From Solirubrobacteraceae bacterium (GTDB taxonomy: Bacteria; Actinomycetota; Thermoleophilia; Solirubrobacterales; Solirubrobacteraceae), in assembly GCA_030447505.1 (NCBI GenBank), contig JAUJOT010000004.1:124001-188000 (forward strand): a DNA stretch of 64,000 nucleotides. The letters are read 5' to 3'. Positions 10,704 through 24,233 of this stretch are shown in pieces. Position numbers and translations under genes: made by a program. Every line of letters begins with the position of its first letter. Within the stretch, counting starts at the first letter, position 1. The notes beneath the pieces were generated by a model. That model was not told where the DNA came from. It saw nothing but the letters and a program-made list of their open reading frames with translations, and searched no databases.

Positions 10704-11145
10704 CGGCGGTCTCGTGGGCGGGGTTCTTGGTGAGGCTCTTGGTAAGGACGTCGAGTGCGCGCAGCACGTTGCCGCGCTCGCTGCTGGGGACGGCGTCGAG
10801 CAGAGTGGCCAAGCGTGCGCGGCGCGCGCCGGCGATGCGGTCGGCGGCCGCGCGTCCGTGCTCGGTCAGCACGAGCTGGACGGCGCGTTGGTCTTGCGGG
10901 TGGCGTTGGCGGCGCAGCCAGTCGCGGTCAGCGAGCGCGTCGGCCAGGCGGCTGACAACGCTGCGGTCCAGCCGGAGGCGGCGCGCAAGCTCGGCCTGCG
11001 TCAGCGGTTGCACGGCCAGTTCGGTCAGGGCGTGGGCCTGCGAGGCGCTGATCGCTTCGCCACACGGGGTGCGGTCGGGCTGGTGCAAGCCGAACGCGCG
11101 AACGAACGCGATGAGCTGGTGCTCCAGGTCCTCAACGGACGACAT
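10696..11145 (-). CDS. MarR family transcriptional regulator
   Basis: This 149-residue protein has a winged helix: PLTQAELARRLRLDRSVVSR is the recognition helix region and RQRHPQDQRAVQLVLTEHGR is the wing (DxRxxxLxLTxxG). Flanking helices form the dimer interface. MarR proteins repress neighbouring genes until a ligand binds. Here the natural target was probably the MFS exporter just upstream, now reduced to a remnant, plus the exported protein downstream with which it overlaps. Its start lies inside the last codons of the MFS remnant, so an upstream deletion may have fused them. Confidence 0.88.
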   Translation of the reverse strand: MSSVEDLEHQLIAFVRAFGLHQPDRTPCGEAISASQAHALTELAVQPLTQAELARRLRLDRSVVSRLADALADRDWLRRQRHPQDQRAVQLVLTEHGRAAADRIAGARRARLATLLDAVPSSERGNVLRALDVLTKSLTKNPAHETADA

Positions 11146-11476
11146 CGGTGCAGTCTACACCAATTGATGCAAGCAGCACCAAGTTGGCCAGGCCGGCGAC
11201 GAGTGAGCCGCCGAGCAGTAGCGCGAAGCCGACGCTGAAGAGCCTGCGCGGGCCGTAGACGTCGGACAGCTTGCCGCCGAGCAGGAGCAGACCGCCGAAC
11301 GCGATGACGTAGGCGTTGAGGACCCACGGCAGGTCGGCCTGGCTGAAGCCGAGCGCGCGCTGGATGTCGGGCAGAGCGACAGCGATGATCGAGGTGTCCA
11401 TGATCACGAGGAACTGCGCGACGGCGATGATCCACAGTGCCTTCCAGCGCCTCCGATCAGGGGTGGGGGTGGACAT
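11132..11476 (-). pseudogene. Truncated MFS (DHA2/EmrB-type) exporter, N-terminal remnant
   Basis: Residues 1-90 are the start of a 14-TM drug exporter. They show helix 1 (VAQFLVIMDTSIIAVALPDI), the AYVIAFGGLLLLGGKLSDV helix 2 region and the LSDVYGPRRLF motif A between helices 2 and 3. After about 90 residues the frame ends in CTDVVR and a stop, against roughly 450-500 residues in the family. The remaining sequence leads straight into the MarR gene. A large internal deletion is the simplest explanation. The remnant cannot transport. Confidence 0.8.
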
Positions 11477-12153: not shown

Positions 12154-13335
12154 ATGGCCTCCATCCAAAGCACACGCAAAGGCCTCGACGGGCCCGTGAC
12201 GTCGCCACTCGCGATCGAGGTCTCGGTCGTGATCCCGTGCCTCAACGAGGCCGAGAACATCGAGGAGTGCGTGCGGCGGTCGCGGGCCGCACTCGACGAG
12301 GCGGGCATCGTCGGCGAGGTCGTCGTCGCCGACAACGACTCCGACGACGGCAGCGCCGAGCTCGCGGCGGCCGCCGGCGCCCGCGTCGTACACGAGCGGC
12401 GGCGCGGCTACGGCTCGGCCTACCTCGCGGGCTTCGCTGCCGCGCGAGGCGAGTACATCGTGATGCTCGACGCCGACATGACCTATCCGTTCCAGGACAT
12501 CCCGCGCTTCGTCGAGGAGCTGCGCGCCGGCGCCCAGCTCGTGATGGGCGACCGGATGGACAACATCCAGCCGGGCGCGATGCACTGGATGCACCGCTAC
12601 ATCGGCAATCCGGTGCTCAGCGGGACGCTCAACCTCTTCTTCCGGACGGGCGTGCGCGACGCGCACTGCGGGATGCGCGGCTTTCGGCGCGACGTCCTGC
12701 CGCTGCTGGACCTGCGCGCGACGGGGATGGAGTTCGCGTCGGAGATGGTCATCCGCGCCTCCAAGGAGAAGCTCGACATCCGCGAGTTCCCGATCGCCTA
12801 TGCGCCCCGCGGCGGCGAGTCCAAGCTGTCGCGCTTCCGCGACGGCTGGCGGCACCTGCGCTTCCTGCTCGTCCACAGCCCGACGCACCTGTTCATCGTG
12901 CCGGGCGCGATCGTGCTGCTGGTCGGCCTGCTGATCTCGGCGGTCGCGCTCAGCCAGCTTCCGATCTTCGGCCGCGCGTGGAACCTGCACACGCTGATCG
13001 CGGGTGAGCTGATGAGCGTCGTCGGCGTGCAGATCGTCGCGCTCGGGCTCTGCGCGCACGCGTACGGGACGTACTTCATGGGCGAGAAGGACCCGTGGTT
13101 CGATCGCATGCGCGCGCGCTTCCGGCTCGAGCACGGGCTCATGCTCGGCGGCTCGATCCTGGTCGCCGGGCTCGTCGCGGGGGCGGTCATCGTCGCCATC
13201 TGGATCGACCGCGGCTTCGGCGCGCTGTCGGAGGAGCGGCTGGCCGTGACGGCGGCTGCGCTCGTCATCATCGGCCTGCAGATCTTCTTCTCGTCGTTTC
13301 TGCTGTCGATCCTCGGGCTGCGCCGCCGCGCCTGA
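12154..13335 (+). CDS. GT2 dolichol-phosphate-mannose-synthase-like glycosyltransferase with a membrane tail
   Basis: A protein of 393 residues. Residues 25-230 are a GT-A domain with VSVVIPCLNEAENIEECV, ADNDSDDGS, GYGSAYLAGFAAARGEYIV, the MLDADMTYPF metal site and DAHCGMRGFRR. This is the DPM1/GtrB-like pattern for charging polyprenyl phosphate with a sugar. Roughly residues 245-390 hold about four transmembrane helices, which anchor it at the inner face of the membrane. The ATG at 12154 fits the family N-terminus; an in-frame extension upstream is not supported. The next gene, a large membrane protein, begins 14 nt downstream and is a likely functional partner. Confidence 0.88.
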   Translation: MASIQSTRKGLDGPVTSPLAIEVSVVIPCLNEAENIEECVRRSRAALDEAGIVGEVVVADNDSDDGSAELAAAAGARVVHERRRGYGSAYLAGFAAARGEYIVMLDADMTYPFQDIPRFVEELRAGAQLVMGDRMDNIQPGAMHWMHRYIGNPVLSGTLNLFFRTGVRDAHCGMRGFRRDVLPLLDLRATGMEFASEMVIRASKEKLDIREFPIAYAPRGGESKLSRFRDGWRHLRFLLVHSPTHLFIVPGAIVLLVGLLISAVALSQLPIFGRAWNLHTLIAGELMSVVGVQIVALGLCAHAYGTYFMGEKDPWFDRMRARFRLEHGLMLGGSILVAGLVAGAVIVAIWIDRGFGALSEERLAVTAAALVIIGLQIFFSSFLLSILGLRRRA

Positions 13336-13349
13336 TCGACTGCCGGAAC

Positions 13350-15776
13350 GTGGACCTGCTCGCAGCCTGGCTGCTGTATCCGCTCGCCCTTGCGGGCATC
13401 TGCCTCGGGCTCGCGCTCCTGATCGAGCGGTTGACGGCATGGCGGACGCCCGCGGCGCTGATGCTGCCGGTCGGCTTCGTCGCGCTGCTCGCGCTCGCGC
13501 GGGTCATCACGTCCGACGCGAGCAGCGCGCGCCTGGCGCTGCCGGTGATCGGCGCGCTCGCCCTGCTCGGGCTCGTCCTCGGCCACCCCAGGCTGCGCGC
13601 GCTGCGGCCCGAGCCGTGGCTGCTCGCCGCGTCGGCGGGCGTGTTCGGGCTGCTCGCCGCTCCGGTCGTGCTGTCGGGGTCGCCGTCGTTCGCCGGCTAT
13701 CTGTCGCTGCCCGACACCTCGCACCAGCTGGCGCTGGCGGACCTCTACGCGCAGCGCGGGCCGGACTGGATGGGGCTGCCCGAGAGCGCCAACCATGCGA
13801 CGCTGCGCAAGTACGTCACGACGCTGTATCCCGTCGCCGGCCAGGCGGCGCTGGGCGTGAGCGCTCCGCTCGGGGTCATCGACCTCGCCTGGCTGTACCA
13901 GCCGTTTCTCGCGTTCGCGGTGATCGTCCTCAGCCTCGCGATCTGGTCGCTCAGCGCCCCGCTGCTCGCGCATCGCTGGCAGGCCGCGGTCGTGACGTTC
14001 ACGGCGTCGCAGTCGGCGCTGCTCGTCGGCAACTACCTGACCGGCTCGATCAAGGAGATCACGACGGTCGCGGTCCTCGTGACGCTGATCGCGCTCGTCG
14101 CCGCGGGGATCTCCGACCGCACCCCGGCGCGGTCGCTGCTGCCGGTCGCGCTCGCCGCCGCCGCCGCCCTCGGCGCGCTCGGGCCGGCGGCGCTGCCGTA
14201 TCTCGCGATCCCCGGGCTCGCGGTCGCCGCGGTGTGGGGTCATCGGATCGTGCACGCGCGGCGCTTCGGCGACGTCGCGTGGATCGCGGCGTGGGCGGCG
14301 CTGCTCGCGCTCCTGGCGCTGCCGATCCTGCGCACGCTGCCGACGGCCGTGCAGGTCACGACGACCGTGCTCGTCGATCTCAAGGACGAGCTGGGCCACC
14401 TCGCCGGGCCGCTGGACACGCGCCAGGCGCTGGGCATCTGGCTCTCCGGCGACTTTCGCTATCTGCCCGACGACGCCCTCGACGTCCCGCAGGCGATCCT
14501 GCTGTGGACCGCCGGGATCTCGGCGATCGTCGGCATCGCGTGGGCGATCCGCGGCCGGCGCTCAGGGCCGCTGCTGATGGCGGCGACGTTCGTCCCGGTG
14601 TCGGCGTACCTGCTCGAGCGCGGGACGACGTATGCCGACTCGAAGGTCCTGCTGATCGCCTCGCCCGCCGTGCTGCTGCTCGCCATGCTCGGCGCGGCGA
14701 GCCTGTGGACCGGGCGCTGGCGCGTGCTCAGCGGCGCCCTGACGGTGGCGCTGCTCGGCGGCGTCACGTGGTCCACCGCGCTGGCCTATCACGACGTGTC
14801 GCTGGCGCCGCACGAGCGCTACACGGAGCTGCTCGAGATCAACGAGCGGCTTGCCGGCAAGGGCCCCGCGATCCTCGGCGAATACGACGAGTTCGCGGGC
14901 TACTTCCTGCGCAAGGTCCCGGGCTACAGCTCGCCGGAGTACCCGCACGAGTTCCGCGACGCGCCCTACGACCCCAACGCGCTGCGCGACCCCAAGCGCC
15001 GGCCCAGCGAGAAGACGCCGATCGACATGGACGACCTGACGCTCGGCTATGTCGAGTCCGTGCCGTACATCATCCTGCGACGCGGCCCGCAGACGAGCAG
15101 GCCGCCCGCGAGCTTCCGGCTCGAGAGCCGCGGCACCTACTACGACGTCTGGCGCAGGACAGCCGAGCCGCGCGTGCTCGACCACGTTCCGCTGGGGCCC
15201 GACGTCCTGCACCAGGCGGCGCGCATCAGCGAGCCGGTCGCGCGCAGGCTGGCGCGCCGCGCGCGCAGGCTCGGCGGCCGGATCGCCTTTGCGCCGCGCG
15301 CCCGACCAGTGATCTTTCTCGCGAGTCGCCACCCGCGACCGCTGCGCTGGATCGGCTTCGGCAACTTCCCCGAGACGCTGCTCAGCGACGGGCCGTCCAA
15401 CGTCCGCGCGCCGATCCGCGTGCCGGCCACAGGCCGCTACAAGGTCTGGGTCGAGGGCTCGTTCGCGCGCCGTCTGGTCATCGGACTCGACGGCAAGCCG
15501 CTTCCGCGCACGCCGTCCGGGTTGAACAACCCCGGCGCGTACGCCTCGCTCGGGACCGTCTCGCTGCAGCGCGGCAAGCACCAGATCTCGATCCGCCAGT
15601 TCGGCGGCGACCTGCGGCCCGGCAGCGGCGGCTACCTGTCGAGCCTGCGCCACATGGGTCCGATCTACCTCGATCCGGTGCAGAACGATCGCTACGTCGT
15701 GCGCGAGATCGAACCGCGTCGCTGGCGCGAGCTCGTCGGCGTGCGCGCCGACTGGCTCGAGATCGTCCGCGAGTAG
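13350..15776 (+). CDS. Large multi-pass membrane protein, possible GT-C-like partner of the upstream GT2
   Basis: Of 808 residues, the first ~480 hold about 11-13 hydrophobic helices and the last ~320 form a soluble, probably extracytoplasmic, domain. The helix-rich half has loops with acidic residues and GYLSLPDTSHQ, where GT-C enzymes keep acceptor-site acids. The C-terminal half contains beta-rich stretches (VPATGRYKVWVEGSFAR, SLQRGKHQISIRQFGG). I do not recognise an exact family. A polyprenyl-phosphosugar-dependent transferase is plausible because the GT2 that would charge the carrier precedes it by 14 nt. The GTG at 13350 is the first start after that stop. Confidence 0.75.
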   Translation: MDLLAAWLLYPLALAGICLGLALLIERLTAWRTPAALMLPVGFVALLALARVITSDASSARLALPVIGALALLGLVLGHPRLRALRPEPWLLAASAGVFGLLAAPVVLSGSPSFAGYLSLPDTSHQLALADLYAQRGPDWMGLPESANHATLRKYVTTLYPVAGQAALGVSAPLGVIDLAWLYQPFLAFAVIVLSLAIWSLSAPLLAHRWQAAVVTFTASQSALLVGNYLTGSIKEITTVAVLVTLIALVAAGISDRTPARSLLPVALAAAAALGALGPAALPYLAIPGLAVAAVWGHRIVHARRFGDVAWIAAWAALLALLALPILRTLPTAVQVTTTVLVDLKDELGHLAGPLDTRQALGIWLSGDFRYLPDDALDVPQAILLWTAGISAIVGIAWAIRGRRSGPLLMAATFVPVSAYLLERGTTYADSKVLLIASPAVLLLAMLGAASLWTGRWRVLSGALTVALLGGVTWSTALAYHDVSLAPHERYTELLEINERLAGKGPAILGEYDEFAGYFLRKVPGYSSPEYPHEFRDAPYDPNALRDPKRRPSEKTPIDMDDLTLGYVESVPYIILRRGPQTSRPPASFRLESRGTYYDVWRRTAEPRVLDHVPLGPDVLHQAARISEPVARRLARRARRLGGRIAFAPRARPVIFLASRHPRPLRWIGFGNFPETLLSDGPSNVRAPIRVPATGRYKVWVEGSFARRLVIGLDGKPLPRTPSGLNNPGAYASLGTVSLQRGKHQISIRQFGGDLRPGSGGYLSSLRHMGPIYLDPVQNDRYVVREIEPRRWRELVGVRADWLEIVRE

Positions 15777-15785
15777 CGCTTCGCC

Positions 15786-16589
15786 TCAGGCGGCGGCGAG
15801 CGCGACGTTGCGCATCCGGATCGTGTCGCAGGCCTCGGTCGCCTCGAACCCGGCCGGGACCGGGATCTCGATCCCGACCGCCTCGGCGTAGATCAGCTCG
15901 ATCCGCGCGAGCAGGTCCGGGCGGATCGCGCCCACGACCGTGCCCTCGTGACCCTCGACGTCGATCTTCAGCACCGCGATCGCGTCCGCGACCGCGAGCA
16001 CCTCCTCGAGCACGGAGTTGATGTGCCGGCAGCGCACCGTCGTCGTGTCGGGCAGGCTGACGCCGAGGCCGCCGTAGCGGCCGCTGTCCTCGACGCCGAA
16101 CGTGGCCTCGCCGTCGAAGTCGGCGACCGCGACCTGCTGCACCTCGAAGCGGCCGTCGAACTGCGCGAGGTTCTGGCGCAGGCGCTCGACGTTGCGCGGC
16201 ACCGGCTCGTAGAGATGGCAGGCCACCTGCGCCCCGCGCGTCAGGAAGTACAGCGCCGAGAGGCCGATGTTCGAGCCGATGTCGACGACGGTCGGCGGCG
16301 CCACGCGAACCGCATAGTCCTCGCGGCAGAACATCTCGTTGAGCGTGATCATGTCGTGGTAGGTCCACAGCGTCGGCGCGATCGTGCCGGCAGGCGTGCG
16401 CACGGCGAACCGCACGGGGTAGGTGCCGCGGCCGCGGAAGTAGCGCTGCGCGGCGTCGAGCGGGCGCGGATAGCGGCGCACCATGTTCGCCAGCGCCGCG
16501 TAGTTGCGTGGCTGGGCGATGTTGCGTGCCACGAAGCCGACGGGGCGCCCGCCGAGGATCCGCAGCGGCTGGTCGCGCAGCGCTGTCAC
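15786..16589 (-). CDS. FkbM family methyltransferase
   Basis: This 267-residue protein has a C-terminal FkbM domain: PTVVDIGSNIGLSALYFLTR (SAM loop), VACHLYEPVPRNVERLRQNL, the TTVRCRHINSVLEEVL segment and VLKIDVEGHEGTVV, the family signature. FkbM enzymes O-methylate sugars and other hydroxyls. The GTG start overlaps the stop of the ABC permease gene by four bases (GTGA), so it is translated with the exporter. This makes sugar methylation of the exported glycan the most economical role. The N-terminal ~90 residues are less conserved. Confidence 0.87.
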   Translation of the reverse strand: MTALRDQPLRILGGRPVGFVARNIAQPRNYAALANMVRRYPRPLDAAQRYFRGRGTYPVRFAVRTPAGTIAPTLWTYHDMITLNEMFCREDYAVRVAPPTVVDIGSNIGLSALYFLTRGAQVACHLYEPVPRNVERLRQNLAQFDGRFEVQQVAVADFDGEATFGVEDSGRYGGLGVSLPDTTTVRCRHINSVLEEVLAVADAIAVLKIDVEGHEGTVVGAIRPDLLARIELIYAEAVGIEIPVPAGFEATEACDTIRMRNVALAAA

Positions 16590-17434
16590 AGCTCCTCCGC
16601 CGCGGCCGGCGCCATACGGTCGAAGACGCGCAGCCCGAGCCACGTCACGCCGACGAGGATCACGAGCGGCACCGCGATCAGCGTCGTGGAACCGAGCGCG
16701 TCGCTGAGCGACGTCCCGCCGACGAGCAGGTGGCGCCCCTCCTGGATGATCGCCGCGATCGGGTTGAGCAACGCGATCTTCGCCAGCGTCTCGGAGCGCC
16801 CGATGACCGCCTCGATCGGATACAGGATCGGGGTCGCGTAGAACAGCGCCTGCAGCACGACCTCCCAGATCGGCCGGATGTCGCGATAGCGCACGTAGAG
16901 CGCGCTCAGCAGCATCGCGACGCCGGTCGCGAAGACGAGCATCAGCGCGAGCGGGATCGGCAGCAGCAGCCACGACCAGCGCGGCTGCACGCCGCTCGCG
17001 ACGACGAAGATCGCGACCACGACGAGGTTCAGCGCGAGGTTCATCGCCGCGACGAGCGCAACCGACAGCGGCACGACCGCGCGCGGAAAGCCGACCTTGC
17101 GCAGCAGCGACTCGCGGTCGACCATCGCGGTGACGCCCGCCCCGGTGACCTCGGCGAAGAAGAAGTACAGGATCATCGCGAGCAGCAGGATGACGCCGTA
17201 GTGCTCCACCCCGGCGCCGGCCTCGACGACCTCCGAGAAGACGAAGTAGACGATCCCGAACAGCATCAGCGGGCGCAGCAGCGACCAGACGTAGCCGAGC
17301 GCCGAGCCGTAGAAGCGCACCTTCCAGTCGGTCGCGGCGAGCGTGCGTGTGAGGTTCCAGAAGCGCCCCAGGTCGCCGCCGCCGGTGGCCGAGGGACCAC
17401 GGACGCGATAGGCGCCGGCGGGCGTCGCGCTCAC
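16586..17434 (-). CDS. wzm: ABC-2 polysaccharide export permease (Wzm/TagG-like)
   Basis: This 282-residue permease has an amphipathic start (FWNLTRTLAATDWKVRFYGS) and six hydrophobic helices, with the family text LGYVWSLLRPLMLFGIVYFV and YVRYRDIRPIWEVVLQALFY. It pairs with an ATPase to flip undecaprenyl-linked polysaccharide across the membrane. The GTG at 17434 follows the ATPase stop by 7 bp, and the stop overlaps the FkbM start. The order ATPase, permease, methyltransferase on one strand forms an export operon. Confidence 0.9.
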   Translation of the reverse strand: MSATPAGAYRVRGPSATGGGDLGRFWNLTRTLAATDWKVRFYGSALGYVWSLLRPLMLFGIVYFVFSEVVEAGAGVEHYGVILLLAMILYFFFAEVTGAGVTAMVDRESLLRKVGFPRAVVPLSVALVAAMNLALNLVVVAIFVVASGVQPRWSWLLLPIPLALMLVFATGVAMLLSALYVRYRDIRPIWEVVLQALFYATPILYPIEAVIGRSETLAKIALLNPIAAIIQEGRHLLVGGTSLSDALGSTTLIAVPLVILVGVTWLGLRVFDRMAPAAAEEL

Positions 17435-17441
17435 GGCCCGC

Positions 17442-18701
17442 TCATCCCGCCGCGCCTTCGGGCGCCGGCTCGACGGCCGCGGCCGCGCGGGCGATGGAAT
17501 ACGCGTGCGGGATGTCGACGAGGCCACCTCCCGCACGCGAGCCCGAGACGACGAACGACGTCGCGTGCTCGGCGCGCGCCAGGACCCGTCGGCCCGACCC
17601 GCGCTGCAGCACCTGGCCGGCGAGGCTGTAGCGACCGGGGGCAAGCCAGTTGTCGAAGCTCACGGCGACCGTGATGACCTCGCCCGCTGCGAAATCGCCG
17701 CTCGTCGTCTCGTCCCATTCCGAGCTCGTCGCGAACGTGCGCCGGTGCTGGGCGTCCTCGACCTCGAGTGCGAAGACGGGCTCGCTGAGCGGCCGTAGGA
17801 ACCGCACCCGCATGCACAGCGCGCACGGCGCTCCCTGCTCGACGCTGTCGCACGGGCCGCGCGCGTCCTGAAACCATGCCTCGACGATGTGCACGCCGTC
17901 GTCGCCGTCGCTCGCGGGTAGCTCGCGGCCGGCGGCGACCGGCACGCTGATCCCGAAATTCAGCTCGGTGTAGCGGCGGGCGACGTGCGCGGCGTCGCCG
18001 AGCGTGACGATCCGTCCGCGCTCGAGCAGCATCGCGCTGTCGCAGAAGCGCTGCACCTGGTCCATGTCGTGGGTGACGAGCAGGATCGTCTTGCCCTCGT
18101 CGCGCGACCGGTTGAGCACGTCGTAGCACTTCTGTTGAAAGGCGGCGTCGCCGACGGCGAGGACCTCGTCGATGAGCAGCAGCTCGGCGTCGACGTGGAC
18201 CATGACGCTGAACGCGAGCCGCACCTGCATGCCCGACGAGTAGTTCTTCAGCTTCAGCTCGGCGAACTCGTGCAGCTCGGCGAAGTCGATGATCGAGCCG
18301 TAGCGGGCACGCGCCTCGGCCGGCGTGAGGCCGAGCATGACGCCGTTGATCAGCACGTTGTCGTGCGCCGTGAGGTCGGGGTTGAAGCCGACGCCGAGCT
18401 CGATGAACGGCGCCATCCGGCCGCGCAGCCACATCTCGCCTGCGTCGGCCCGGTAGATCCCCGCGAGGCACTTCATCAGCGTGCTCTTGCCCGAGCCGTT
18501 GCGTCCGACGATCCCGAACACCTGCCCGCTGCGGACCTCGAAGCTCACATCGCTGAGCGCGCGCAGCGTCTCGACGCGTACGCGTCGCGTCGGGTGCAGC
18601 GCGCGCTCCTTGAGCGTGCTGATCTGCTCGGTCGGCAGGCGAAACGTCTTCGAGACGCCGTCGACCTGCACCGCGATCCCGGCTGCGGGCACACCGCTCA
18701 C
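17442..18701 (-). CDS. wzt: Polysaccharide ABC exporter ATPase with C-terminal carbohydrate-binding domain (Wzt-like)
   Basis: A protein of 419 residues. Residues ~10-250 form the ATPase with VGRNGSGKST (Walker A), KNYSSGMQVRLAF (signature), ELLLIDEVLAVGD (Walker B) and LVTHDM (switch His). Residues ~270-410 form a beta-sandwich matching the Wzt C-terminal fold (MRVRFLRPLSEPVFALEVED ... VDIPHAYS). In E. coli O9a this domain recognises the capped end of the glycan before export. A GTG at 18701 is used; an in-frame ATG at 18770 would overlap the divergent gene by 44 bp. TACCCT ends 8 nt upstream. Confidence 0.92.
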   Translation of the reverse strand: MSGVPAAGIAVQVDGVSKTFRLPTEQISTLKERALHPTRRVRVETLRALSDVSFEVRSGQVFGIVGRNGSGKSTLMKCLAGIYRADAGEMWLRGRMAPFIELGVGFNPDLTAHDNVLINGVMLGLTPAEARARYGSIIDFAELHEFAELKLKNYSSGMQVRLAFSVMVHVDAELLLIDEVLAVGDAAFQQKCYDVLNRSRDEGKTILLVTHDMDQVQRFCDSAMLLERGRIVTLGDAAHVARRYTELNFGISVPVAAGRELPASDGDDGVHIVEAWFQDARGPCDSVEQGAPCALCMRVRFLRPLSEPVFALEVEDAQHRRTFATSSEWDETTSGDFAAGEVITVAVSFDNWLAPGRYSLAGQVLQRGSGRRVLARAEHATSFVVSGSRAGGGLVDIPHAYSIARAAAAVEPAPEGAAG

Positions 18702-18708
18702 CGGAGGA

Positions 18709-18718
18709 AGGGTAGCCT
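18709..18718. promoter_or_regulatory. Putative bidirectional -10 element, A-N3-TA-N3-T
   Basis: AGGGTAGCCT lies in the 25-bp gap between the wzt GTG (18701) and the GT4 ATG (18727). TAGCCT on the plus strand ends 9 nt before the GT4, and TACCCT on the minus strand ends 8 nt before wzt. The two share the central TA. Confidence 0.5.
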
Positions 18719-18726
18719 CGACCGCG

Positions 18727-20139
18727 ATGGCAGAACGCCTGCACGGGCCGCGACTCCCGCTCGGCGTCAATCTCGCGGGGTATCTCGACGCGACCCTCGG
18801 CGTCGGCGAGGCGGCCCGTCACGTTCGCAGCGCGCTCGAGGCGGCCGGGGTCATGGTCGCCCCCCTGCCGCTGACCGCTCGCGACAGCGAGCGACCGCTC
18901 AGCGCGGCCGCCGCCGAGCCGATCCACCCGGTCACGATCGTCTGCGTCAACCCCGACGCGATGACCGGCGCGCGCGACGAGCTCGGCCCGGCGGCATTCG
19001 ACGGCCGCCACGTCGTCGGGATGTGGTGGTGGGAGGTGGCGGCGCTCCCGCCGCGCTGGCTGCGCGCGTTCGACCTCGTCGACGAGGTCTGGGTCGGGTC
19101 TCGCTTCGTCGCCGACGTGCTCGCGGCGCTCGCACCGGTGCCGGTCGTGCACGTGCCGCTGCCCCTGCCCGAGCCGGTCGCGTCGGACGCCGGGCGCGCG
19201 CAGCTCGGGCTGCCCGAGGACCGCTTCCTGTTCGGCTTCGTCTTCGACTACGCGAGCGTCGCCGGGCGCAAGAACCCGCTCGGCTTGATCGACGCGTTCG
19301 GGCGTGCGTTTCCTGCCGGTCGCGGCGGCGAGGCGCCCGCCGCCGGGCTCGTCCTGAAGACGCTCGGGGGGGAACGCCATCCGGACGAGCACGGCGCGGT
19401 GCTCGCAGCGGCGGCTGCGCATCCGCACGTCACCGTGATCGATGCGCACCTTTGCGCCGCCGCCAAGAACGCGCTCATCCGCGCGCTGGACTGCTATGTC
19501 TCGTTGCATCGCTCGGAGGGCTTCGGGCTGACGATCGCGGAGGCGATGCTGCTCGGAACGCCGGTCGTCACGACGGACTACGGGGGTTCGCGCGACCTCG
19601 CGACATCGTTCAACGCGCTGCTCGTCGACGCGACGCCAGTCGCGATCGGCGCCGGCAACGACCCCTACCCGGCGGACGGCGAGTGGGCAGAGCCCGACCT
19701 CGACCACGCCGCAGCGCAGCTGCGCGCCGCGTTCGAGGATCCCGCCGCCGGTCGCGCGCGCGCACGGCGCGCTCGCGCCGACGTCCTCGCACGCCACGCG
19801 CCGTCGATCGCCGGACAGGCGATGGCGCAGCGGCTCGCGCGGGTGCTGCAGCTCCCGCTCGACGGCAGCGGCCGCGGCACGACGCTCGACCTCGGCGGCG
19901 TGCGCGAACGGATGGCGACCGGGCCGAAGGCCGCCCCCGGCGCCGGCCGCGGCGCGCGCGGCGCGATCCGCGCGGCGGCGCTGCGGGCGATGCGCCCGTA
20001 CACGGTTCACCAGCGGCTCGTCGACGAGGAGCTGCTGCGTGCGCTGCAGTCGCTCGACGAGCGCGTCCGCGGGCTCGCGGCGGGACAGCAGGCGCTGGCC
20101 GCGGAGCTCGCCCGCCTGCGCGGCGGGGATGATGATTGA
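18727..20139 (+). CDS. GT4 family glycosyltransferase with C-terminal coiled coil
   Basis: The protein has 470 residues. The GT-B part runs from LGVNLAGYLDATLGVGEAAR through GMWWWEVAALPP and AGRKNPLGLIDAF to DCYVSLHRSEGFGLTIAEAM, the donor-binding motif. After residue ~390 comes a basic linker with AALRAMRPYTVHQRLVDEEL, then a short heptad-like helix ending RLRGGDDD. The linker recurs in the GT4-methyltransferase fusion at 20622-22814, where a methyltransferase follows; here that domain is absent. TAGCCT ends 9 nt before the ATG. It is divergent from the exporter and probably builds the same glycan. Confidence 0.88.
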   Translation: MAERLHGPRLPLGVNLAGYLDATLGVGEAARHVRSALEAAGVMVAPLPLTARDSERPLSAAAAEPIHPVTIVCVNPDAMTGARDELGPAAFDGRHVVGMWWWEVAALPPRWLRAFDLVDEVWVGSRFVADVLAALAPVPVVHVPLPLPEPVASDAGRAQLGLPEDRFLFGFVFDYASVAGRKNPLGLIDAFGRAFPAGRGGEAPAAGLVLKTLGGERHPDEHGAVLAAAAAHPHVTVIDAHLCAAAKNALIRALDCYVSLHRSEGFGLTIAEAMLLGTPVVTTDYGGSRDLATSFNALLVDATPVAIGAGNDPYPADGEWAEPDLDHAAAQLRAAFEDPAAGRARARRARADVLARHAPSIAGQAMAQRLARVLQLPLDGSGRGTTLDLGGVRERMATGPKAAPGAGRGARGAIRAAALRAMRPYTVHQRLVDEELLRALQSLDERVRGLAAGQQALAAELARLRGGDDD

Positions 20140-20140
20140 G

Positions 20141-20599
20141 ATGACCTATTCGACAGCCGACGCGCGGCAGGACCTGCTCGCCGCGGTCGCCGACGCGATC
20201 GACGATCTCGCGCGCGCCCTTGCCGCGCTCGGCGCCGCCTACGAGTTGCTCGACGAGCACAAGGCCGACGAGCTCGAGCAGTCGCTCTTCGGCCCCGTGC
20301 AGGCCGCGTACGGTCGCGCGCGGCGCACGCACAGCGAGTTCGCCGGCCGCCACGGGCTGGCGGCGCGCACGTTCACGACGCCGGCGCCGGGCGCGCCCTC
20401 GCGGGGGCTGAAGGGTTACGTCGACGACGCCGTCGCGGCCGTCACGAGCGCCGACGCGACGCTCGCCACCCTGCAGGACTCGATGCTGCCGGTCGAGGTC
20501 GGCGACGCCGAGCTGCGCGCCGGCCTGGCGAACGTCCGCGAGCTCGTCGCCGACGTGCCGCAGCGGGCGCGGGCGCTGTCGCGCACGTTCGGGCGCTAG
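20141..20599 (+). CDS. Small helical protein of unknown function in the glycan locus
   Basis: This 152-residue protein is rich in Ala, Asp, Arg and Leu and is predicted almost all helical (AVADAIDDLARALAALGAAY, FGPVQAAYGRARRTHSEFAG). No signal, membrane span or known motif is seen. It is nested between two GT4 genes on the same strand. ATGs at 20129, 20132 and 20141 are all in frame; the last avoids overlap with the upstream stop, but the first has a nearby purine run. A scaffold or accessory role for the glycosyltransferases is only a guess from position. Confidence 0.65.
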   Translation: MTYSTADARQDLLAAVADAIDDLARALAALGAAYELLDEHKADELEQSLFGPVQAAYGRARRTHSEFAGRHGLAARTFTTPAPGAPSRGLKGYVDDAVAAVTSADATLATLQDSMLPVEVGDAELRAGLANVRELVADVPQRARALSRTFGR

Positions 20600-20621
20600 T
20601 GCTGTGCCACCATCGGCGCCG

Positions 20622-22814
20622 ATGAACCGCAACCCGCAGCTCGCGTCGCTCGGCGTCAACGCCGTCGGCTACCTGCGCGGCGGCCTCGGCCTCGGCCAGG
20701 CCGCGCGGCTGTACGTGCAGGCGCTGCACGAGTCCGGCGTTCCCGTCCGCACGACGACCGTCGACGTCAACCTGCCCGACGTCATCGGTCCGGACGGTCG
20801 CCGCGCGCAGGTCAAGACGACGGACTTCGCCGACCTGCACGTCGAGGGCGAGCTGCCGTTCAACCTCGTCTGCGTCAATGCGCCGGAGCTGCCCGCGCTG
20901 CACGCGACCCTCGGGCCTGAGTTCTTCGAGGATCGCTACACGATCGGCGTATGGGCGTGGGAGGTCGACGTCGTGCCGCCGAGCTGGGACCGCGCCTTCG
21001 GCCTCGTCGACGAGATCTGGGTCTACTCGCGCTACGTGCAGGAGATCGTCAGCAACGTCTCGCCGGTCCCGGTCGTGCGCATCCCGCTGCCGATCGTCGC
21101 GCCGCCGCCGGGCGGCGACGTCGCCGGCCTGCACCTGCCGGAGGGCTTCGCGTTCCTGTTCCTCTTCGACTTCTACTCGACGCTGCAGCGCAAGAACCCG
21201 CTCGGCCTCGTCGAAGCGTTCACGCGCGCCTTCGAGCCCGGCGAGGGGCCGCAGCTCGTGCTCAAGAGCCACAACGGCGACTTCAAGCCCGAGCGCCTGG
21301 CGCGGCTGCGCGAGGTCGCCGGCGAGCGGCCGGACATCCACATCGTCGACCGCTTCCTGGCCGGCTCGGAGATGGCGGCGCTGATGCGGCGCGCCGACTG
21401 CTACGTCTCGCTGCACCGCGCCGAGGGTTTCGGGCTGACGCTCGGCGAGACGATGGCGCTCGGCAAGCCCGTCATCGCGACGGGCTTCAGCGCCAACCTC
21501 GACTTCATGACCGCCGAGAACTCCTACCTCGTGCGTCACACCGAGACGCTCGTCGGCGAGGAGGGCGAGAACTACCCCGCGCACGGGACGTGGGCCGAGC
21601 CCGACCTCGATCACGCCGCGCAGCTCATGCGCGAGGTCTGGCAGAACCCCGACGAGGCGCGCAGGCGCGGCGAGCGCGCCCGGCGCGAGATCGGCGAGCA
21701 CTTCTCGCTGGAGGCCGTCGGGCGCGTCGCGCGCGATCGCCTCAAGCGCCTCGCGGCAGGCCACCGGCGCCGGAACGCGGGGATCACGATGAGCGGCTCG
21801 ACGCCGGACGGCGCCGGCGACGACCTGGCGAACAGCTGGGTCGAGCTGGCCGAGTTGAAGCTCACCTACGACCCGCTGCGCGCCGCGCGCGAGACGGGTG
21901 GCGCGAAGGGCGCGGCGCGGCGCGCCCTGCTCACCGCGATGCGCCCGTATACGCACCACCAGGACGAGCTCAGCCGCTCGACCGTCCATGCCGTACGCGA
22001 CGTCGAGAACCGCCTCGACGACCTGACACTCGACACGCAGGCGCAGATCGCCCGCCTGCAGGCGCTCGTGTATCGCTCCGAGGCCGTCGTCGGGCAGCTC
22101 TCGCTGCTCCTGGAGGGCATCCGCGCGCGCCCGGCGTCGACGCACCCGGCGATCTCGCAGCTCGACGAGCACGGTCGCCGCGTGCTGCGCTTCGAGGGCG
22201 CCTCGAGCGACGCGGCGACCTATCGCGGCTTCGAGGACATCTTTCGCGGCGACGAGCGCGCGGTGCGCGAGCAGCAGCTCGCCTACCTGCCGTACTTCGC
22301 GGGCGCCGACTGGGTGCTCGACCTCGGCTGCGGCCGCGGCGAGTTCCTCGACGCGCTCGTCGCGCGCGGGATCGGCGCGCGCGGCGCCGACACCGACGAG
22401 AGCATGGTCTCGCGCTGCCGCGAGAAGGGCCTGGACGTCAAGCGCGCCGACGCCGCCACGTACCTGCGCGAGCTCGCCGACGGCGCCGTGCCCGCGATCT
22501 TCGCCGCGCAGGTCGTCGAGCACCTCGGCGCCGAGCAGCTGACCGAGCTGCTCGAGCTCATGCAGCGCAAGCTCGCGCCGGGCGCCGTCGCGATCATGGA
22601 GACCGTCAATCCGCACAACCCGGCGGCGATGAAGGCGTTCTGGACGGACACGACGCACCACCATCCGCTCTATCCGGAGGTGCTGCTCGCGCTCTGCCGC
22701 CTGGTCGGCTTCGAGTCCGGCGAGGTACGGTTCCCGGAGGAGACCGACAACTTCGACGACGACGTGTACGCCAACCGCGACTACGCCGTCGTCGTGCGCA
22801 GCGCCTCGCGCTGA
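20622..22814 (+). CDS. Fusion of GT4 glycosyltransferase, coiled coil and SAM methyltransferase
   Basis: A protein of 730 residues. Residues ~1-390 are a GT-B GT4 domain (GYLRGGLGLGQAARLYVQAL, QRKNPLGLVEAF, DCYVSLHRAEGFGLTLGETM). Residues ~410-510 carry LLTAMRPYTHHQDELSRSTV and a long heptad-rich helix (VENRLDDLTLDTQAQIARL). Residues ~530-730 are a methyltransferase: WVLDLGCGRGEFLDALVARG, GADTDESMV, FAAQVVEHL and METVNPHNP. The layout recalls WbdD-type chain terminators, where a coiled coil separates the polymer end from a capping methyltransferase. A GTG at 20604 is a possible earlier start. The role in capping is inferred. Confidence 0.88.
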   Translation: MNRNPQLASLGVNAVGYLRGGLGLGQAARLYVQALHESGVPVRTTTVDVNLPDVIGPDGRRAQVKTTDFADLHVEGELPFNLVCVNAPELPALHATLGPEFFEDRYTIGVWAWEVDVVPPSWDRAFGLVDEIWVYSRYVQEIVSNVSPVPVVRIPLPIVAPPPGGDVAGLHLPEGFAFLFLFDFYSTLQRKNPLGLVEAFTRAFEPGEGPQLVLKSHNGDFKPERLARLREVAGERPDIHIVDRFLAGSEMAALMRRADCYVSLHRAEGFGLTLGETMALGKPVIATGFSANLDFMTAENSYLVRHTETLVGEEGENYPAHGTWAEPDLDHAAQLMREVWQNPDEARRRGERARREIGEHFSLEAVGRVARDRLKRLAAGHRRRNAGITMSGSTPDGAGDDLANSWVELAELKLTYDPLRAARETGGAKGAARRALLTAMRPYTHHQDELSRSTVHAVRDVENRLDDLTLDTQAQIARLQALVYRSEAVVGQLSLLLEGIRARPASTHPAISQLDEHGRRVLRFEGASSDAATYRGFEDIFRGDERAVREQQLAYLPYFAGADWVLDLGCGRGEFLDALVARGIGARGADTDESMVSRCREKGLDVKRADAATYLRELADGAVPAIFAAQVVEHLGAEQLTELLELMQRKLAPGAVAIMETVNPHNPAAMKAFWTDTTHHHPLYPEVLLALCRLVGFESGEVRFPEETDNFDDDVYANRDYAVVVRSASR

Positions 22815-22829
22815 GCGCGCGCCTCACGC

Positions 22830-24233
22830 ATGGCCGCCGGCGCGAGCATCTCCTTCTGCATGACGACGCGCGGGCCGGCCGCCCGCGCCCGCGCGCTGCT
22901 GAGCATCGTGCGCCCGTACGTCGACGAGATCGTGCTCGCGGTCGACGACCGCGCCGGCGCCGATATCCACGAGGCCTGCGCCGATCTCGCCGACCAGCGC
23001 CTGACGTTCGAGTTCGCTCCGCCGCCGTGCCGGCTGATCGGCTGGCTGCAGCACCAGTGCAGCTGCGACTGGCTGCTGCGCTTCGACGACGACGAGATCC
23101 CGAGCAGCGCGCTGCTCGACGCGCTCGGCGAGCTGACCGCCGATCGCCAGGTGACCCACTACGGCCTGACCCGGCGCTGGCTGCACGACGAGCCGCGCAG
23201 ATACCTGCTGAGCCCGCCATGGCAGCCCGACTACCAGGACCGCCTGGTGCGCAACGTGCGCGGGCTGTGGCGCTTCACGGGCGCGATGCACGACGGCGCG
23301 ATCATCCTCGGCGAGCGCGGTCTCGCCGACAAGCCGATCTACCACGCCGACCTGCTCCTGCTCGGCGTCGAGGACCGCCGCCGCAAGGCCGAGCGCTACG
23401 AGCGCCTGCGCCCCGACCACGTGGCCGAGGGCGCGTCGGTGAACGCGATCTACGTGCCGGAGGATCGCGATCAGCTCGCCTGCGCGCCGGTGCCGGACGC
23501 CGATGCGCAACTGATCGCACGCGTGCTGGAGGCGAAGGCCGCCCCGGCGCCCGCGGCGCCCGCGGCGCCCGCGGGGACCTACGCGCCGGTGCGCCACTTC
23601 ACGCTCTTCGACGTCGACCGCTTCAACTCGCTGCGCACCGTGTCCGCCAACGCGTATGCCGCGCGGATCGAGTTCGTGCGCCCGGTGACGCGCGTCGGCA
23701 GCGCGATCACGCGCGAGCAGGAGGTTCTCGTCGAGAACCTCGGCGACGAGCGCTGGCCGCCGGGACACGACGCCGAGCCGCTGATCCGGCTCGGTCACCG
23801 CTGGCGCCGCCCGAGCGCGAGCGGCGTCGCCGGCGATGTGCTCGCGGAGGGGCCGCGCAGCGCCTTTGCGAAGACCGTCTCCCCCGGCGAGCGCACGCTC
23901 GCCAAGCTCGTGCTGACGACGCCCGACGAGCCGGGTCGCTACGTGCTCGAGGTGGCCGTCGTCCACGAGCACGTGCGCTGGTTCGGCTCGCCCGCGTACC
24001 TCGAGGTCGACGTCGAGGACGCGAGCGCCGGCGACGCCAGCGCTGCCGGCAGGCGCGCGTATCCTGCGCAGGCCCGCAGCCAGGGGCTGTCGGCGCCGCA
24101 GGTGCTGCGCGACTTCAAGCGTTGGGCGGCCGGCCTGCCGCAGCGCACGCCGCTGGCCGATCGCGTCTCGGCTCACGTTCGCCGCGCAGCGCGCGCTCGA
24201 CGACGCGCTCGAGCCCGCGATCGCCGTCTGTGA
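22830..24233 (+). CDS. GT2-like glycosyltransferase with C-terminal beta domain
   Basis: This 467-residue protein begins with a divergent GT-A domain: ISFCMTTRGPAARARALLSI, DEIVLAVDDRAG and the acidic cluster LLRFDDDEIPSS at the metal site. A low-complexity linker (APAPAAPAAPAG, from a 9-bp tandem repeat near 23545) leads to a beta-rich domain with REQEVLVENLGDERWPP and PGRYVLEVAVVHEHVRWFG, resembling a carbohydrate-binding or NEW3-like sandwich. The final ~15 residues are Arg-rich and run over the remnant of another gene in a second frame, so the natural C-terminus may be lost. The start is 15 nt after the fusion gene, suggesting one operon. Confidence 0.75.
   Translation: MAAGASISFCMTTRGPAARARALLSIVRPYVDEIVLAVDDRAGADIHEACADLADQRLTFEFAPPPCRLIGWLQHQCSCDWLLRFDDDEIPSSALLDALGELTADRQVTHYGLTRRWLHDEPRRYLLSPPWQPDYQDRLVRNVRGLWRFTGAMHDGAIILGERGLADKPIYHADLLLLGVEDRRRKAERYERLRPDHVAEGASVNAIYVPEDRDQLACAPVPDADAQLIARVLEAKAAPAPAAPAAPAGTYAPVRHFTLFDVDRFNSLRTVSANAYAARIEFVRPVTRVGSAITREQEVLVENLGDERWPPGHDAEPLIRLGHRWRRPSASGVAGDVLAEGPRSAFAKTVSPGERTLAKLVLTTPDEPGRYVLEVAVVHEHVRWFGSPAYLEVDVEDASAGDASAAGRRAYPAQARSQGLSAPQVLRDFKRWAAGLPQRTPLADRVSAHVRRAARARRRARARDRRL

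What the first reader, a model, noticed from the sequence alone, without database searches (positions are those of the whole stretch)
15786..22814. Possible methyl-capped glycan system: GT4-coiled coil-methyltransferase plus Wzt with a sugar-binding tail
The 730-residue protein at 20622 joins a GT4 domain, a long coiled coil and a methyltransferase. Next to it, Wzt carries a C-terminal carbohydrate-binding domain, and an FkbM methyltransferase is translationally fused to Wzm (GTGA). In E. coli O9a, WbdD uses a coiled coil as a ruler, caps the chain with a methyl group, and Wzt's tail recognises the cap for export. Here the polymerase-like GT and the capping enzyme appear in one chain, which would be a single-protein version of that control.
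Basis: inference. Interest (0 to 1): 0.6.

Follow-up and report, generated by a model that had tools for sequence, protein, structure and literature searches.

The report
Sugar-chain builder fused to capping enzyme
A soil-type actinobacterium carries, next to a sugar-chain exporter with a cap-reading domain, one protein that joins a sugar-adding enzyme to a methyl-adding enzyme through a helical spacer; it is probably a local version of a known scheme for stopping sugar chains at a set length, with the parts in reverse order and with a capping part that relatives swap for other enzymes.

Summary
The genes are real and as described, except that the coiled coil is short. The 730-aa protein at 20622-22814 is a GT4 (GT-B) domain, a roughly 75-residue predicted helix with a 52-residue heptad run, and an intact class I SAM methyltransferase. 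Wzt carries a true Wzt_C domain related to the three structurally solved cap-reading domains. The FkbM gene overlaps wzm by GTGA. The host is a Solirubrobacteraceae bacterium without LpxC, so the glycan is not LPS. The same GT4-coil scaffold occurs in 55 of 399 Thermoleophilia genomes. The module behind the coil is exchanged among relatives: this methyltransferase, a DUF268-like methyltransferase, an FkbM-like one, a GT8-fold glycosyltransferase, or nothing. In five loci the coil-methyltransferase is instead a separate neighbouring gene. Wzm/Wzt lies within about 10 kb in 28 of 49 loci. Relatives of the methyltransferase sit directly behind wzm-wzt in proteobacteria. I therefore favour a polymerase-spacer-terminator protein whose methyl cap licenses export. 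Single-chain versions are already known (WbbB, K. pneumoniae O7 ORF6, WsaE), so 'one-protein control' is not new. The GT-first order and the swappable terminator are variants. The methyl cap itself is unproven, and the methyl pocket of Aquifex Wzt is not conserved here.

The parts
20622..22814 (+). GT4 - helical spacer - class I methyltransferase fusion, 730 aa
20652..21767 (+). GT4 (GT-B fold) domain, residues 11-382; invariant E268/E276 (EX7E), R190-K191
   Evidence: Z 33 to 3oy2; many GT4 structures at Z 25-30
21942..22130 (+). 'MRPYTHHQ' motif followed by a heptad run (residues about 441-503), inside predicted helix 427-501
22221..22802 (+). Class I SAM methyltransferase domain, residues 534-727, motif DLGCGRGE intact; closest structure 3dli
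18727..20139 (+). GT4a, paralogue of the GT4 domain, with the RPYTVHQ motif and a short coil but no methyltransferase
   Evidence: (42% identity)
20132..20599 (+). Small predicted protein of unknown function between the two GT4 genes, found only in the same genus
17442..18701 (-). Wzt, ABC ATPase with C-terminal Wzt_C domain
17511..17909 (-). Wzt_C (carbohydrate-binding) domain
16586..17434 (-). Wzm, ABC-2 permease
15786..16589 (-). FkbM-family methyltransferase, GTGA overlap with wzm
   Evidence: not found in related loci
22830..24233 (+). GT2-like glycosyltransferase with a C-terminal Ig-like domain
   Evidence: weak Pfam N_BRCA1_IG; relatives in other loci
12154..13335 (+). Polyprenyl-phosphate-sugar synthase-like GT2 (AglJ/DPM-like)
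13323..15776 (+). Large polytopic membrane protein (possible GT-C) recurring near these clusters
   Evidence: no Pfam family

Best explanation
The 20622 product is a polymerase-spacer-terminator protein of an ABC-transporter-dependent glycan pathway. The GT4 domain, probably together with GT4a and the GT2-like enzyme, extends a lipid-linked chain at the inner face of the membrane. The RPYT motif and helix oligomerise and hold the methyltransferase at a distance. When the growing non-reducing end reaches the methyltransferase it is O-methylated, which stops growth. The capped end is bound by Wzt_C and the chain is exported by Wzm/Wzt to become a wall or S-layer type glycan. Shown: domain make-up, intact catalytic motifs, predicted helix, Wzt_C family, genetic linkage, exchange of the terminal module and existence of split forms. 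Inferred: polymerase role, terminal position of the methyl group, ruler action, recognition by Wzt_C.
For: GT4 EX7E and methyltransferase motifs are invariant in 19 relatives. Model: two confident catalytic domains joined by one helix. The Wzt_C profile finds the A. aeolicus CBD (6o14, 8dky; E 4e-6), E. coli O9a 2r5o (0.0025) and 5hno (0.008). A Wzm or Wzt gene is in 28 of 49 loci of 12 kb or more, 24 with a C-terminal extension of 140 aa or more; Wzt_C is in 47 of 55 carrier genomes against 199 of 344 others, p 8e-5. The module behind the coil is exchanged. Five loci have a separate coil-methyltransferase gene beside the GT. Proteobacterial relatives of the methyltransferase lie directly behind wzm-wzt or wzt. 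In characterised systems the terminator sits at the far end of a coiled coil from the polymerase (PMC11231755).
Against: No product structure is known. The coil is short and of low model confidence. The methyl-contacting residues of A. aeolicus Wzt (Thr346, Ala348, Trp362) are Ala, Gln and Arg here. Methyltransferase and Wzt_C distances correlate hardly more than expected once the Wzt ATPase is controlled for (partial r 0.26, p 0.05). 21 of 49 loci have no transporter in the fetched stretch. Some loci hold a second methyltransferase gene (L048, L052, L090).
Confidence: 0.58

Rival explanations
1. The methyltransferase domain decorates internal or every repeat-unit sugars, or the reducing-end adaptor. 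The helix is only a dimerising linker, and chain length and export are set by something else.
For: The spacer is short (52-residue heptad run) and some relatives show almost none (L068, L078). No conserved Wzt pocket for methyl. Several GT4 paralogues end after the coil with no enzyme.
Against: A Wzt_C exporter is commonly linked, which in studied systems means a capped substrate (PMC9445017). The terminal module is always at the far end of the coil from the GT.
Confidence: 0.2
2. The FkbM enzyme overlapping wzm makes the cap read by Wzt; the fusion methyltransferase does something else.
For: Translational overlap with wzm in the transporter operon; FkbM domain over cut-off. FkbM-like modules occupy the terminator position in two relatives.
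Against: No FkbM relative was found near the transporter in related loci; in L046 a nucleotide-sugar dehydrogenase-like gene takes its place. The fusion methyltransferase is the recurrent one.
Confidence: 0.12
3. The methyltransferase acts on a non-glycan acceptor (lipid carrier, protein) or its domain is a structural relic.
For: The closest solved relative, 3dli, has no known substrate. One relative (L053) has lost the SAM motif.
Against: Catalytic motifs are intact in nearly all relatives; the enzyme is always beside glycosyltransferases.
Confidence: 0.07

Closest known systems
K. pneumoniae O7 ORF6 and O12 WbbB (PMC11231755)
   Same: Polymerase GT modules, coiled coil and terminator in one chain, served by Wzm/Wzt.
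   Different: There the terminator is N-terminal and the GTs C-terminal; the cap is methyl-phosphate or Kdo. Here the order is GT-coil-methyltransferase and no kinase or Kdo transferase was found.
Geobacillus stearothermophilus WsaE with Wzm/Wzt (PMC2943079, PMC3898925)
   Same: Methyltransferase and glycosyltransferases in one chain; a 2-O-methyl cap; Gram-positive, non-LPS glycan; ABC transporter.
   Different: WsaE has an N-terminal methyltransferase and two rhamnosyltransferase domains; no coiled coil is described in the papers read.
E. coli O9a WbdD/WbdA/Wzt (PMC3482155)
   Same: Methyl cap, helical spacer, Wzt C-terminal domain.
   Different: WbdD is separate from the polymerase, has a kinase, and trimerises through a much longer C-terminal region.
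Aquifex aeolicus Wzm/Wzt (PMC9445017)
   Same: Its Wzt ATPase and CBD are among the nearest solved relatives; that CBD binds 3-O-methyl mannose.
   Different: The residues that hold the methyl group are not conserved in the window's Wzt.
wzm-wzt-methyltransferase loci on Campylobacter, Shinella, Pseudomonas and Sulfitobacter plasmids
   Same: Same methyltransferase family (32-38% identity), beside Wzt or an ABC ATPase; fused to GTs in Campylobacter and Sulfitobacter.
   Different: In the fused forms the methyltransferase comes first. Wzt of Campylobacter, Pseudomonas asturiensis and Shinella keeps the methyl-stacking Trp.

Membership tests
Cap-dependent (Wzt_C) ABC glycan exporter | Wzt ATPase with C-terminal Wzt_C domain plus Wzm permease | tested here: met
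   PF14524 62 bits over a 30.4 cut-off; ABC2_membrane; profile hits to 6o14, 8dky, 2r5o, 5hno
Cap-dependent (Wzt_C) ABC glycan exporter | CBD binds the chemically modified chain end | not testable with these tools
   Needs a binding assay; the A. aeolicus methyl pocket residues are not conserved, and the O9a domain also lacks that Trp
Coiled-coil polymerase/terminator systems (WbdD, WbbB, O7 ORF6) | Terminator enzyme separated from polymerase GT by a coiled coil | tested here: inconclusive
   One predicted helix of 75 residues with a 52-residue heptad run, low pLDDT, monomer model only
Coiled-coil polymerase/terminator systems (WbdD, WbbB, O7 ORF6) | Catalytically intact terminator domain | tested here: met
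   DLGCGRGE and downstream motifs present, key residues invariant in 19 relatives; activity itself not tested
Coiled-coil polymerase/terminator systems (WbdD, WbbB, O7 ORF6) | Terminal modification controls chain length | not testable with these tools
   No glycan data
WbdD (kinase-methyltransferase) | Kinase domain between methyltransferase and coil | tested here: not met
   No kinase domain by Pfam or NCBIfam and no room for one in the model
LPS O-antigen system | Lipid A biosynthesis in the host | tested here: not met
   No LpxC in the 97.65% complete genome; two LCP ligase-family genes present

The most novel reading that the evidence does not exclude
Thermoleophilia use a common GT4-RPYT-coil scaffold onto which different cap-making enzymes (two or three methyltransferase families, or a GT8 glycosyltransferase) have been plugged at the far end, each matched to a Wzt_C exporter: a natural combinatorial series of single-chain chain-length rulers, in reversed domain order, making non-LPS glycans.
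Probability: 0.4. Interest if true: 0.55.

Novelty: new variant of a known kind. Interest (0 to 1): 0.42.

Why it matters
If true, it extends cap-dependent chain-length control to an actinobacterial class without LPS. It shows that the spacer principle works in either domain order. It also supplies a set of natural variants (spacers from about 30 to 167 residues, several kinds of terminator, fused and split forms) with which the ruler idea and cap recognition could be tested directly.

Tried and rejected
Long coiled coil as stated: not upheld for this protein. FkbM as the conserved cap enzyme: not found near the transporter in relatives. Co-evolution of methyltransferase and Wzt_C as a test of cap recognition: inconclusive, n = 12. 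Wzt_C methyl pocket: not conserved. A literature search for this system in Solirubrobacter gave nothing, and a search for Wzt/Wzm in Actinobacteria with coiled coil and methyltransferase gave no paper on such a system. Direct comparison with WsaE and WbdD sequences was not possible. WbdD was not among the listed structural rows, which says nothing either way.

Full report
WHAT IS THERE. The window lies in contig C11 of a 3.84 Mb, 97.65% complete genome. Its nearest named relatives are Solirubrobacteraceae MAGs. Two divergent gene groups start about 25 bases apart. On the minus strand are wzt (18701-17442), wzm (17434-16586) and fkbM (16589-15786); the last two share GTGA. On the plus strand are GT4a (18727-20139), a small gene (20132-20599), the GT4-coil-methyltransferase gene (20622-22814) and a GT2-like gene with an Ig-like tail (22830-24233). 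A GT2 and a large membrane protein lie at 12154-15776 and an rmlC-type gene at 24992-24333(-).

THE FUSION. Pfam finds GT4 and Methyltransf_23 over cut-off. In an alignment of 19 relatives the GT4 EX7E glutamates (E268, E276) and the key residues of the methyltransferase motif DLGCGRGE are invariant, as are E633-H634 and FWxDxTH. AlphaFold gives a confident GT-B domain (11-382), a disordered stretch (383-404), one helix 427-501 of low confidence and a confident methyltransferase (534-727). Against solved structures the first half matches GT4 enzymes (Z up to 33) and the second half matches 3dli, an Archaeoglobus methyltransferase of unknown substrate (Z 27, rmsd 1.6, 36% identity; E 9.7e-49 by sequence). 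My simple heptad score finds 52 residues over a threshold set on GT4 domains. The spacer is therefore about 50-75 residues, not long. Relatives range from no detectable run (L068, L078) to 167 residues (L045, Thermoanaerobaculia).

RELATIVES. A search of 399 Thermoleophilia genomes found the GT4-linker protein in 55, and 74 GT4-family proteins were extracted. Many begin with a further domain; a C-terminal copy of it in L056 has the GT8 fold (Z 16). Behind the coil the enzyme differs: the window's methyltransferase family in about 20 proteins; a DUF268-like methyltransferase in L055, L060, L073, L076 and L082; an FkbM-like one in L057 and L084 (these and a standalone relative match PF05050 weakly); a GT8 domain in L056; nothing in GT4a and others. 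Two proteins (L097, L100) carry another methyltransferase without a coil. In L050, L066, L067, L069 and L071 a separate coil-methyltransferase gene lies beside a GT8-GT4 gene, mostly with a similar motif and coil in front. A partner encoded either fused or next door usually means the two work together (inference).

THE EXPORTER. The Wzt_C alignment finds the CBD of A. aeolicus, E. coli O9a Wzt-C and 5hno, and no other convincing hit. In 49 loci of at least 12 kb, 28 hold Wzm or Wzt and 24 a Wzt with a long C-terminal extension; with one or two Wzt_C genes per genome, chance linkage would be about 1% (my estimate). Genome-wide, Wzt_C occurs in 47 of 55 carriers and 199 of 344 others, p 8e-5; this test does not correct for relatedness. 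The residues that hold the methyl group in A. aeolicus (PMC9445017) are not conserved here. In three proteobacterial plasmid loci, where a relative of the methyltransferase directly follows wzt, the Trp is conserved. This ties the methyltransferase family to methyl-cap recognition elsewhere, but it also warns that the cap read here may differ.

WHAT GLYCAN. No LpxC was found, so lipid A is unlikely; two LCP-family genes are present. A wall, capsule or S-layer glycan is the likely product (inference).

HOW IT MOST LIKELY WORKS. Studied systems place the terminator at the far end of a coiled coil from the polymerase, and the cap both stops growth and licenses export (PMC11231755; PMC9445017). 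The present protein has the same layout read in the opposite direction. Export dependence on the methyl group, ruler action and the terminal position of the methyl are inferences. Methyltransferase and Wzt_C distances agree, but hardly more than the Wzt ATPase explains.

NOVELTY. Single-chain polymerase-terminators are known (WbbB, O7 ORF6, WsaE). What I did not find described is the GT-coil-methyltransferase order, its spread in Thermoleophilia, and the exchange of terminators on one scaffold. It is a new variant of a known kind.

Noticed in passing
window 20132-20599 (+): Helical-looking 155-aa protein without any Pfam or NCBIfam match, kept between GT4a and the fusion gene in the same genus (L040-L043) but absent from L046.
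   Followed up: partly
window 12154-15776 (+): A dolichol/polyprenyl-phosphate-sugar-synthase-like GT2 followed by a large membrane protein; similar membrane proteins recur near these clusters (L046, L050, L051, L052). May be an extracytoplasmic glycosylation pair.
   Followed up: partly
window 11132-11476 (-): An MFS transporter reading frame that stops after 114 aa beside a MarR-like regulator; looks truncated.
   Followed up: no
G000:C7:421248-421595: A second Wzt_C domain gene elsewhere in the same genome, in a 665-codon open frame.
   Followed up: no
L053 8773-12081 (-): A relative whose methyltransferase domain has lost the glycine-rich SAM motif although the rest is recognisable.
   Followed up: no
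L106-L108, L110: DUF4214-domain genes flank the methyltransferase loci on Campylobacter, Pseudomonas and Rhizobium plasmids, which hints at a glycosylated surface-layer or secreted protein.
   Followed up: no
window 22830-24233 (+): GT2-like enzyme with an Ig-like C-terminal domain; three tandem relatives in L069 (13079, 14947, 16149).
   Followed up: no
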